Source of the DNA: Verrucomicrobium sp. GAS474 | GTDB taxonomy: Bacteria; Verrucomicrobiota; Verrucomicrobiia; Methylacidiphilales; GAS474 | Length of the DNA stretch: 64,000 nucleotides | Assembly: GCF_900105685.1 (NCBI RefSeq) | Contig: NZ_LT629781.1 | Span: 186,001-250,000 of the forward strand | Direction: 5' to 3' | Shown here: one piece after another, positions 13,621 through 56,516 of the stretch | Layout: each line of letters starts with the position of its first letter | Numbering within the stretch: the stretch's first letter is position 1 | The notes under the pieces: generated by a model | What the model saw: only the letters and a program-made list of their open reading frames with translations | Databases searched by the model: none | Told to the model about the DNA's origin: nothing | Translations under genes and position numbers: made by a program

Positions 13621-13878
13621 CTCCCCCGATAGGAGTCTGGGCGTATTGGAGGAGTCTGGGCGTATTGGCCCTGTCTCTCCCTATCGCCCGTACCCTCGGG
13701 CGTTCAGGGAAGCAGCGGATTTTAAAACAGTTAGGAGACGGGGCGCCGCCAAAGCGCGTCCGCCTAGTTCAGGCTCTCCGAAGGGGAGGTCACGGAGGGG
13801 CGAAGCCCCTCTGTGGCGTTAAAGCGGGTTACATCCAGCTGTACAGGGTTGACCGCGCAGGTCCCGAAGGGCTGCCCC
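13621..13878 (+). repeat. intergenic structured repeat, copy A
   Basis: This is one of nine full copies of a non-coding repeat of about 238 bp. Copy A is 258 bp because the 18 bp unit GGAGTCTGGGCGTATTGG is duplicated in tandem near its start. The central hairpin is CACG-GAGGGGC/GCCCCTC-TGTG with a GAA loop (13791-13815), followed by CTGTACAG and a CCC/GGG end hairpin. It faces copy B in opposite orientation across about 135 bp. It is not downstream of a plus-strand gene. Confidence 0.9.
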
Positions 13879-14014
13879 GCTTCGTGGCACTTCCCAGCGT
13901 GGGTCTCCCATACGCCTCATTTCCCATACGCCTCATTTCAAGCGCTCCGTCTCCCAAGCGCATGGGAGAGGAACGCTTGGGAGACAAGGCGCACGGGGAA
14001 AGGGATCGCGGAAC

Positions 14015-14253
14015 GGGGACCGCCCTTCGGGACTTGCGCGGTCAACCCTGTACAGCTGGAGGCGATCCGCTTTATAGCCCAAGAGGGGCTTCGCCCCTCC
14101 TCGAACCTCCCCCTCGGAGGGCCTGAACTAGGCGGACGCGCTTGGGCGGCGCCTCGTCTTCTCACTGGATTAAAATCGGCTGCTTCCTGGAGCGCCCGAG
14201 GGTACGAGCTATAAGGAGAGACGGGGCCAATACGCCCAAACTCCCATCGGGAG
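14015..14253 (-). repeat. intergenic structured repeat, copy B
   Basis: This is a full copy in minus orientation, 45 bp after the xseA stop in sense with xseA. Its central hairpin has loop GAA but outer pairs CGA/TGG, of which the middle pair is mismatched. CTGTACAG is intact. Between A and B lie a tandem duplication of TCCCATACGCCTCATTT (13907-13940) and a perfect palindrome with 12-bp arms, GTCTCCCAAGCG/CGCTTGGGAGAC (about 13951-13984). The 1004 bp between tRNA-Thr and xseA hold no credible gene. Confidence 0.9.
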
Positions 14254-18210: not shown

Positions 18211-18447
18211 CTCCCAATAGGAGTCTGGGCGTATGGGTACCATCTACCCCTGCGGTACGTACCCTCGGGCGCTCCAGGAAGCAGCCGATTTTAATCCAGT
18301 TCGGAGACAAGGCGCCGCCCAAGCGCGTCCGCCTAGTTCAGGCCCTCAGAAGGGGAGGTCACGGAGGGGCAAAGCCCCTCTGTGGCTATAAAGCGGATCG
18401 CCTCCAGCTCTACAGGGTTGACCGCGCCAGCCCCGAAGGGCCGCCCC
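18211..18447 (+). repeat. intergenic structured repeat, copy C
   Basis: This 237 bp copy lies 51 bp after the pseudopilin stop, in sense with it. The central hairpin (18360-18384) has outer pairs CAC/GTG and an AAA loop. The CTGTACAG palindrome is altered to CTCTACAG. The end hairpin GCCC-CGAA-GGGC is intact. The remaining 75 bp before amt have no recognisable promoter. Confidence 0.9.
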
Positions 18448-20951: not shown

Positions 20952-21141
20952 GGGGCGGCCCTTCGGGACGGGGTACATCTCCCTGTACAGCTGGATGCCG
21001 GACGCGCGTTTAGAGATGCAAGAGGGGGCTGCGCCCCTCCTGCACCTCCCCCTCTGATAGGCCGTGGTGTAGATAAAGCGCGACCCAAGAGGCCTATCTT
21101 CCATAAGCCCGCTCTACTCCGCTGGATCTAACCTCCTTGAG
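20952..21141 (-). repeat. related repeat, copy D (second subfamily)
   Basis: In minus orientation this copy shares the 3' half of the main repeat: central hairpin, CTGTACAG and CCC/GGG end. Its 5' half is different and matches the fragment at 37946-38031. The central stem is TGCAG-GAGGGGC/GCCCCCTC-TTGCA with a GCA loop, so the outer pairs have changed on both sides. It lies 18 bp after the cyclophilin stop, antisense to it. Confidence 0.8.
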
Positions 21142-21211: not shown

Positions 21212-21452
21212 CTCCCATACGATAGGAGTCAGGGCGTATGGGTACCGCTCCCCCTTCAGTACGTATCCTCGGGCGTACTGGAACCATCCGATTTTAATCC
21301 AGTGAGAAGACGAGGCGCAGGGGGAAACGCGTCCGCCTAGGTAAGGCCCTCAGAACAGGAGGTCACGGAGGGGCAAAGCCCCTCTGTGGCGTTAAAGCGG
21401 GTCGCCTCCAGCTGTACAGGGTTGACCCCGCAAGCCCCGGAGGGCGCCCCCC
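21212..21452 (+). repeat. intergenic structured repeat, copy E
   Basis: This 241 bp copy is in plus orientation, divergent from copy D and upstream of frr. The terminal hairpin here has 8-bp arms CCCATACG/CGTATGGG, differing on both sides from the CCAATA/TATTGG of other copies. The central stem is CAC/GTG with an AAA loop. Its end continues into a tail (CCGTTCCGCGACCCC, then TTTCCCCGTGCGC) that copies B and F also have. Together D and E fill the 627 bp between the cyclophilin gene and frr. Confidence 0.9.
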
Positions 21453-22181: not shown

Positions 22182-22420
22182 GGGGAGCGCCCTTCGGGGC
22201 TTGCGCGGTCAACCCTGTACAGCTGGAGGCGATCCGCTTTATAGCCCAAGAGGGGCTTCGCCCCTCCTGGAACCTCCCCTTCGGAAGGCCTGAACTAGGC
22301 GGACGCGCTTGGGCGGCGCCTCGTCTCCGAACTAGATTAAAATCTGCTGCTTCCCGGAGCGTCCGAGGGTACGAACTATAGGGAGAGACGGGGCCAATAC
22401 GCCCTGACTCCTATTGGGAG
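22182..22420 (-). repeat. intergenic structured repeat, copy F
   Basis: This 239 bp copy is in minus orientation between frr and carB, and is the only full copy apart from A that is not sense-downstream of a gene. The central stem is CCAG-GAGGGGC/GCCCCTC-TTGG with a GAA loop. It continues on the right into GGGAGGAATCACGCGTCC, a module also found near copy B and at 35797. The rest of the gap to carB (22421-22627) has a small hairpin GAAGCG/CGCTTC (about 22460-22482) and no gene. Confidence 0.9.
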
Positions 22421-25902: not shown

Positions 25903-26134
25903 GCGCCCTTTGGGGCGGGCGGGGTCGACCCTGTACAGGTGGATGTAACCCGCTTTATAGCCCAAGAGGGGCTTCGCCCCTCCTCGAACCTCCCCCTCGA
26001 AGGGCCTGAACTAGGCGGACGCGCTTTGGCGGCGCCTTGTCTCTTAACTGGATTAAAATCCGCTGCTTCCCGAGCGTCCGAGGGTACGTACTGAAGGGGT
26101 AGCGGTACCAATACGCCTAGACTCCTATTGGGAG
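25903..26134 (-). repeat. intergenic structured repeat, copy G
   Basis: This 232 bp copy in minus orientation lies between the convergent carB and methyltransferase genes, 50 bp after the latter's stop and in sense with it. The central stem has outer bases CGA/TGG and a GAA loop. The palindrome is extended to CCTGTACAGG, and the end hairpin is GCCC-CAAA-GGGC. It fills most of the 322 bp gap. Confidence 0.9.
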
Positions 26135-44000: not shown

Positions 44001-44238
44001 GGGGATGCCCTTCGGGACTTGCGCGGTCAACCCTGTACAGCTGGAGGCGATCCGCTTTATAGCCCAAGAGGGGCTTCGCCCCTCCTGGAACCTCCTGTTC
44101 TGAGGGCCTTAGCTAGGCGGACGCGCGTTGGCGGCGCCTCGTCTCGGAACTGGATTAAAATCGAATGGTTCCTGGAGCGCCCGAGGGTACGAGCAATAGG
44201 GATAGATGGGGCCAATACACCCAGACTCCTATTGGGAG
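44001..44238 (-). repeat. intergenic structured repeat, copy H
   Basis: This 238 bp copy in minus orientation begins only 7 bp after the mqnC stop, in sense with mqnC. The central stem is CCA/TGG around GAGGGGC with a GAA loop, CTGTACAG is intact, and the start has CTCCCAATAGGAG. Its far end lies about 55 bp upstream of the toxin-antitoxin promoter. Confidence 0.9.
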
Positions 44239-54198: not shown

Positions 54199-54434
54199 CT
54201 CCCAATAGGAGTCAGGGCGTATTGGCCCCGTCTCCCCCCGCAATCCGTACCCTCGGGCGTACCGGAACCATCCGATTTTAATTCAGTTCGGAGACGAGGC
54301 GCCGCCAAAGCGCGTCCGCCAAGTTCAGGCCCTCAGAACAGGAGGTCACGGAGGGGCGGAGCCCCTCTGTGGCTATAAAGCGGATCGCCTCCAGCTGTAC
54401 AGGGTCGACCCCGCCCGCCCCAACGGGCCGCCCC
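54199..54434 (+). repeat. intergenic structured repeat, copy I
   Basis: This 236 bp copy is in plus orientation, 33 bp after the LolA-like gene and in sense with it. The start hairpin has CTCC-CAATA-GGAG and CCAATA/TATTGG, the central stem has CAC/GTG outer pairs and a GGA loop, and the end hairpin is GCCC-CAAC-GGGC. It fills most of the 325 bp gap to the ABC exporter. Confidence 0.9.
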
Positions 54435-56279: not shown

Positions 56280-56516
56280 CTCCCAATAGGGGTCTAGGCG
56301 TATTGGCCCCGTCTCTCCCTATCGTTCGCACCCTCGGGCGCTCCGGGAAGCAGCGGATTTTAATCCAGTGAGAAGACGAGGCGCCGCCAAAGCGCGTTCG
56401 CCTAGTTAAGGCCCTCAGAACAGGAGGTCACGGAGGGGCGAAGCCCCTCTGTGGCGTTAAAGCGGATCGCCTCCAGCTGTACAGGGTCGACCCCGCAAGC
56501 CCCGAAGGGCCGCCCC
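56280..56516 (+). repeat. intergenic structured repeat, copy J
   Basis: This 237 bp copy in plus orientation starts only 13 bp after the ABC exporter stop, in sense with it. The central stem is CAC/GTG with a GAA loop. CTGTACAG and the GCCC-CGAA-GGGC end are intact, and the GGATT-TT-AATCC mini-hairpin is perfect. It fills most of the 312 bp gap before the SDR gene. Confidence 0.9.

What the first reader, a model, noticed from the sequence alone, without database searches (positions are those of the whole stretch)
13791..13815. Central stem with compensatory changes, an invariant one-strand G.U pair and GNA loops
The core GAGGGGC-loop-GCCCCTC is constant, but the outer pairs differ in a matched way: CAC/GTG (A, C, E, I, J), CCA/TGG (F, H), TGCA/TGCA (D). 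Copies B and G (CGA/TGG) have one mismatch. Between core and outer pairs all ten copies keep G opposite T, read in the element's own orientation; on the other strand this is a C-A mismatch. That polarity argues that RNA or ssDNA of one particular strand is the functional form. Seven loops read GAA, GGA or GCA with C-G closing, close to the very stable GCGNAGC DNA mini-hairpins; six copies read exactly GCGAAGC.
Basis: partly seen in the sequence, partly recalled or inferred. Interest (0 to 1): 0.75.

Follow-up and report, generated by a model that had tools for sequence, protein, structure and literature searches.

The report
Strand-specific hairpin in bacterial intergenic repeat
The hairpin is the best-folded part of a roughly 230-base repeat that one bacterium carries in over 100 intergenic copies, and its sequence changes keep it folding better on one strand than the other, which suggests that the repeat works as folded single-stranded RNA or DNA, most likely in its own spread.

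Summary
The hairpin lies inside a ~230-nt repeat (type I) with 103 full-length copies in this 3.76-Mb genome, plus diverged relatives. The outer stem pairs vary in a matched way; the inner G·T is constant in all 103. Hairpin columns show the strongest linkage of any column pair 15-30 nt apart, although the rest of the element is a recombined mosaic. With RNA energies the named strand folds better in 134 of 134 hairpins; with DNA energies in 99. Some copies carry a ~62-nt module, always in the same orientation, plugged into this or the neighbouring hairpin; its stems covary and one ends in a GNRA tetraloop. Copies lie between genes, ignore gene direction, and two orthologous sites differ in presence between species. 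I read it as a non-autonomous, mosaic, mobile intergenic repeat whose own folded strand is its working form. RNA or ssDNA is undecided. No mobilising enzyme was found: Y1, reverse transcriptase and TnpB gave no hit in this genome. An exact-pattern scan of about 85,000 species genomes found it in one other genome. Outside the central hairpin the element shows no excess of local folding.

The parts
13650..13872 (+). type-I element, copy A (contains the finding)
   Evidence: R1 model match 199650-199872
13791..13815 (+). central hairpin of copy A: CACG-GAGGGGC-GAA-GCCCCTC-TGTG with G.T wobble 13794/13812
13632..13668 (+). local tandem duplication of the element's first ~19 nt (GGAGTCTGGGCGTATTGG twice)
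   Evidence: sequence
14022..14253 (-). type-I element, copy B, inverted (tail-to-tail with copy A)
14076..14106 (-). central hairpin of copy B with flanks (CGA/TGG haplotype)
18211..18441 (+). type-I element, copy C
21013..21046 (-). hairpin of diverged copy D (TGCA/TGCA, loop GCA; boundaries approximate)
21219..21445 (+). type-I element, copy E
22189..22420 (-). type-I element, copy F
25905..26134 (-). type-I element, copy G
44007..44238 (-). type-I element, copy H
54199..54428 (+). type-I element, copy I
56280..56510 (+). type-I element, copy J

Best explanation
The hairpin is the structural core of a genus-restricted, non-autonomous, mosaic mobile repeat of bacterial intergenic regions. 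Shown here: it has more than 100 copies, lies between genes, is present or absent at orthologous sites, is reshuffled by recombination, and keeps a ~13-14 bp hairpin that forms fully on one strand only. Inferred: the folded single strand (RNA somewhat more likely than ssDNA) is recognised by a trans-acting factor during the element's own propagation, so the selection acts on the element and not on the neighbouring genes.
For: 103 full copies plus diverged relatives. Only one copy overlaps a called gene, by 61 nt; 45 of 103 lie between convergent genes and 8 between divergent ones, against 31 and 46 of 219 gaps in evenly spaced stretches, mostly free of the element. Orientation ignores gene direction: in tandem contexts 24 copies are co-directional and 26 opposite, so host 3'-UTR function does not explain the strand polarity. 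Presence/absence at orthologous sites in both directions. Mosaicism: four-gamete test positive for about 94% of column pairs over 40 nt apart, while hairpin columns show G=127-138 against a maximum of 82.5 for other pairs 15-30 nt apart. Covariation beats 500/500 shuffles. RNA energies favour the sense strand in 134/134, mean -23.9 vs -16.6 kcal/mol. The ~62-nt module occurs in 15 + 8 elements, always in the sense orientation; its helices are 99.5% paired with 4 doubly changed pairs, one showing all four Watson-Crick types.
Against: No mobilising enzyme identified: no Y1, reverse transcriptase or TnpB hit; the Y2 search is uninformative because its controls did not ring. No target-site duplication or terminal inverted repeat was demonstrated. 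The presence/absence sites could be losses. Outside the central hairpin the element is not clearly more foldable than shuffles, and whole-element folding shows no strand preference. No promoter-like site at the window copies and no transcription data.
Confidence: 0.5

Rival explanations
1. ssDNA-only, REP/BIME-like repeat spread by a Y1 (TnpA-REP/RAYT) transposase that reads the hairpin strand-specifically; stem irregularities and short loops set the polarity.
For: TnpA-REP binds only one strand of its palindrome and needs stem irregularities in E. coli (PMC8266576). GAA/GGA/GCA loops are common. Copies are intergenic and sometimes paired in opposite orientations.
Against: No Y1 gene hit in this genome. 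The two Y1 genes of the relative G002 are flanked by different palindromes and carry none of the element motifs searched. The element is ~230 nt rather than 20-40. With DNA energies the CGA haplotype (33 copies) has no strand advantage. The module's GNRA tetraloop is an RNA hallmark.
Confidence: 0.2
2. A functional structured RNA (host non-coding RNA or 3'-UTR stability/attenuation element) dispersed through the genome and kept for host benefit.
For: Covariation, strand polarity and a conserved-orientation module; preference for positions just after stop codons.
Against: Orientation relative to neighbouring genes is random (24 vs 26; 3' neighbour 'stop' 71 vs 5' neighbour 'stop' 69). Presence/absence between close species. 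No promoter-like site or T-run terminator within the window copies. No match in one of three genomes of the genus.
Confidence: 0.2
3. Matched stem changes come from a mutational process: template switching during replication corrects quasi-palindromes, or whole hairpins are swapped by gene conversion, without selection for pairing.
For: Only three outer-stem haplotypes in type I, and the copies recombine, so one ~25-nt tract could carry both arms.
Against: Palindrome correction would remove the G.T and the G-G mismatch, yet G.T is in 103/103 and G-G in 32/103. Each GAGGGGC haplotype adds G.U pairs of the same polarity. The module pairs change independently in another helix set.
Confidence: 0.1

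Closest known systems
REP/BIME repeats with RAYT (TnpA-REP) transposases
   Same: Over 100 intergenic palindrome-bearing copies per genome, mosaic and paired arrangements, strand-polar irregular hairpin (PMC2817692, PMC3733652, PMC8266576).
   Different: Element ~230 nt instead of 20-40 nt; no Y1 hit in this genome; hairpin not preceded by GTAG or CGTC; swappable ~62-nt module.
ERIC and other small mobile intergenic repeats of enterobacteria
   Same: ~100-250 nt, intergenic, thought to be non-autonomous mobile elements (PMC2229807, PMC2759123).
   Different: Not shown to be one imperfect palindrome with terminal repeats; covarying strand-polar hairpin; heavy block mosaicism. ERIC details beyond these abstracts are own knowledge.
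BOX/RUP interspersed repeats of pneumococcus
   Same: Small interspersed repeats in many copies (PMC3049150); modularity of BOX is own knowledge.
   Different: Unrelated phylum; no sequence link was tested.
Structured RNAs carried by mobile elements (for example HEARO/IscB omegaRNA, group II introns)
   Same: Structured sense strand with exchangeable peripheral hairpins (own knowledge).
   Different: No Rfam match, no reverse transcriptase or TnpB hit; IscB itself was not searched.

Membership tests
REP/BIME (RAYT-associated) | high-copy intergenic repeat with a palindrome | tested here: met
   103 full copies, almost all intergenic
REP/BIME (RAYT-associated) | associated Y1 transposase gene in the genome | tested here: not met
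   PF01797: no hit in G000; Y1 loci of G002 carry other palindromes
REP/BIME (RAYT-associated) | 20-40 nt unit with unpaired GTAG or CGTC tag | tested here: not met
   unit is ~230 nt and its hairpin is preceded by GGTCACG, GTTCCAG or GTTCGAG
MITE (DNA-transposon derived) | terminal inverted repeats and target-site duplication | tested here: inconclusive
   no terminal inverted repeat seen in the consensus; duplications not resolvable at the two variable sites
Known Rfam RNA family | match above gathering score | tested here: not met
Structured RNA | covarying base pairs with strand-polar wobble | tested here: met
   central hairpin and module
Structured RNA | transcription and folding in the cell | not testable with these tools
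   no RNA-seq or probing data
Retroelement-mobilised RNA | reverse transcriptase in the genome | tested here: not met
   PF00078: no hit in three genomes of the genus

The most novel reading that the evidence does not exclude
A new class of bacterial selfish element that moves or persists through its own structured RNA: a modular RNA whose peripheral hairpins are exchanged between copies, with a related RNA module also appended to tRNA-Ala 3' ends in a distant member of the class, mobilised by an unidentified enzyme.
Probability: 0.2. Interest if true: 0.8.

Novelty: new variant of a known kind. Interest (0 to 1): 0.5.

Why it matters
High-copy intergenic repeats are common in bacteria, but it is rarely possible to tell whether RNA or DNA is their working form. 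This family recombines so much that background linkage decays within ~30 nt, while paired columns stay linked; the genome itself acts as a covariation experiment. It gives a testable case of strand-specific selection on a dispersed repeat, in a genome with no recognisable Y1, reverse transcriptase or TnpB gene, so a mobiliser of another kind may exist.

Tried and rejected
Intrinsic terminator: no T-run after the hairpin; the scan found none in the element. Known RNA family: no Rfam match. Cis-acting riboswitch-like role: positions and orientation do not fit. RAYT, RT, TnpB helper: not found in this genome; Y2_Tnp uninformative. Globally folded RNA: sliding windows show clear excess folding only around the central hairpin, and the whole element has z about -1.3 (sense) and -1.0 (antisense). 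Replication-strand bias: only a rough look; 57 plus and 46 minus copies, GC skew too noisy to place origin and terminus. Viral spread: no match in viral contigs for two patterns. A first gene-calling run trained on antisense frames and was discarded.

Full report
What the finding is part of. The window is G000:C1:186001-250000 of a 3.76-Mb single-contig genome, GC 66% in the window, with rpoB, tuf and xseA reading frames nearby (gene names by own reading of the translations). Its order also holds complete 2.2-2.5-Mb genomes that I guess are Methylacidiphilum-like (inference). The phylum is taken as Verrucomicrobiota because the only named hits are from an 'uncultured Verrucomicrobium' MAG. The hairpin at 13791-13815 lies in a ~230-nt element (13650-13872). 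A second, inverted copy follows at 14022-14253, so the two form a large tail-to-tail imperfect palindrome. A sequence model built from 39 copies finds 103 full-length type-I copies, plus 47 further listed matches that are split, partial or diverged copies.

Distribution. Copies are dense at 0.1-2.4 Mb and almost absent at 2.4-3.4 Mb. Of 60 genomes searched only the window's own and one other, G002 of the same genus, have recognisable copies; the third genome of the genus, G001, has none. An exact 24-nt tail pattern over 84,980 species genomes hits 32 stretches, all in one MAG (uncultured Verrucomicrobium sp. I3b_bin-317, CAISZB; I take this to be G002). The tool may leave out the window's own genome, and an exact pattern misses diverged relatives, so restriction to this genus is an estimate.

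Position. I called genes in the fetched stretches with a codon model trained on ribosomal and other known genes. Only one of 103 copies overlaps a called gene by more than 60 nt (61 nt). 45 lie between convergent genes, 8 between divergent genes, 24 run with and 26 against a tandem pair. In evenly spaced stretches 31 of 219 gaps are convergent and 46 divergent. Copies therefore sit where insertion does least harm, and they ignore transcription direction.

Presence and absence. At G000 407876-408105 a copy lies between a stop codon and an intrinsic terminator; the orthologous G002 site (L158:3809-3924) has only the terminator. Conversely G002 L160:7475-7746 holds an element where G000 has ~20 nt. 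Other loci appear to carry elements in both species next to the same gene (L177, L183). This shows gain or loss since the two species split, not which of the two.

Mosaicism. Copies are 85% identical at the median. Four-gamete tests are positive for about 94% of column pairs over 40 nt apart, and linkage falls within 10-30 nt. Against this background the hairpin columns stand out: G=127-138, while the best other pair 15-30 nt apart has 82.5 and the best pair over 30 nt apart 55.8.

The hairpin. Pair 155-175 is A-T in 63 and C-G in 40; pair 154-176 is A-T 40, C-G 31, G-G 32; the core stem and the G.T are invariant, apart from one copy with T for G at the 3' side of the loop-closing pair. On 39 copies the covariation score exceeds 500/500 shuffles and all slid registers. 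These are sequence counts, not independent events: type I has three outer-stem haplotypes. Diverged copies and G002 add GGTCCAG/TTGCGTC, GGTGCAG/TTGCATC and GTTCAAG/TTTGGCG, all keeping G.T. One element has A-T instead.

Strand. With RNA energies the sense hairpin is better in 134/134, mean -23.9 against -16.6 kcal/mol; shuffling the flanks leaves a difference of only -2.4 instead of -7.3. Each common haplotype extends the helix to about 13-14 pairs or more, with two to four G.U pairs; the CGA haplotype does so with a bulged G. With DNA energies 99/134 are better and the CGA haplotype is neutral. This leans towards RNA but is a model result. A rare G002 hairpin (CTGAGGGG-GCA-CCCCTCAG) has the opposite preference.

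The module. In 15 G000 and 8 distinct G002 sequences a ~62-nt insert sits in the central hairpin or the hairpin before it, always in sense orientation; a nested mobile insert should occur both ways. On 18 distinct sequences its three helices are 99.5% paired, with four doubly changed pairs; the middle pair of the last helix is C-G, U-A, G-C or A-U, closed by GGGA, a GNRA tetraloop (GGGC in one). I consider this the strongest sign that the sense strand folds, and probably as RNA.

A distant echo. A covariance model of the module (R2) over 388 genomes of the phylum finds, besides G000, two weak hits in G218 and one in G177 (E 3-7e-4 per genome, rough). Both G218 hits directly follow tRNA-Ala genes (CGC, TGC) and repeat the last 16 nt of the tRNA. 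The shared motif GGAAACYRAY...GGGCGGGAGCCAA occurs in only G218 and G002 of 383 genomes, with none in the reversed control. Whether this is homology or convergence is open.

Literature. Strand-specific recognition of an irregular ssDNA hairpin is established for REP sequences and TnpA-REP (PMC8266576); GTAG- and CGTC-tagged REPs are known from Verrucomicrobia among others (PMC3733652). I found no description of this family in the papers searched.

Limits. Outside the central hairpin no clear local folding excess was found. Promoter, transcript and mobiliser are unknown. The gene calls are home-made. The RNA-versus-ssDNA question is not settled.

Noticed in passing
L209:1410-1554 and L212:1429-1573 (G218): Two tRNA-Ala genes are each followed by a short hairpin tail that repeats the tRNA's last 16 nt and contains the motif GGAAACC-GGGCGGGAGCCAA, also found in the repeat's module in G002.
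   Followed up: partly
window 13632-13668: The first ~19 nt of element copy A are tandemly duplicated.
   Followed up: no
G000:C1:2400000-3400000: About one megabase almost free of the repeat (3 of 103 copies), reason unknown.
   Followed up: no
L154 and L155 (G002): Two Y1 (RAYT-like, 151 aa) genes flanked by their own palindromes (CCGGTGGTTGAGGGG...), a separate REP-like system.
   Followed up: partly
flanks of type-I copies, for example window 13900-14000: Further modular repeats of TCTCCCAWRCGC type lie between and beside elements, in both orientations.
   Followed up: no
L210 (G177) around 1500: Weak hit of the module model beside a region rich in GGCAACCGGAGCG-type repeats.
   Followed up: no
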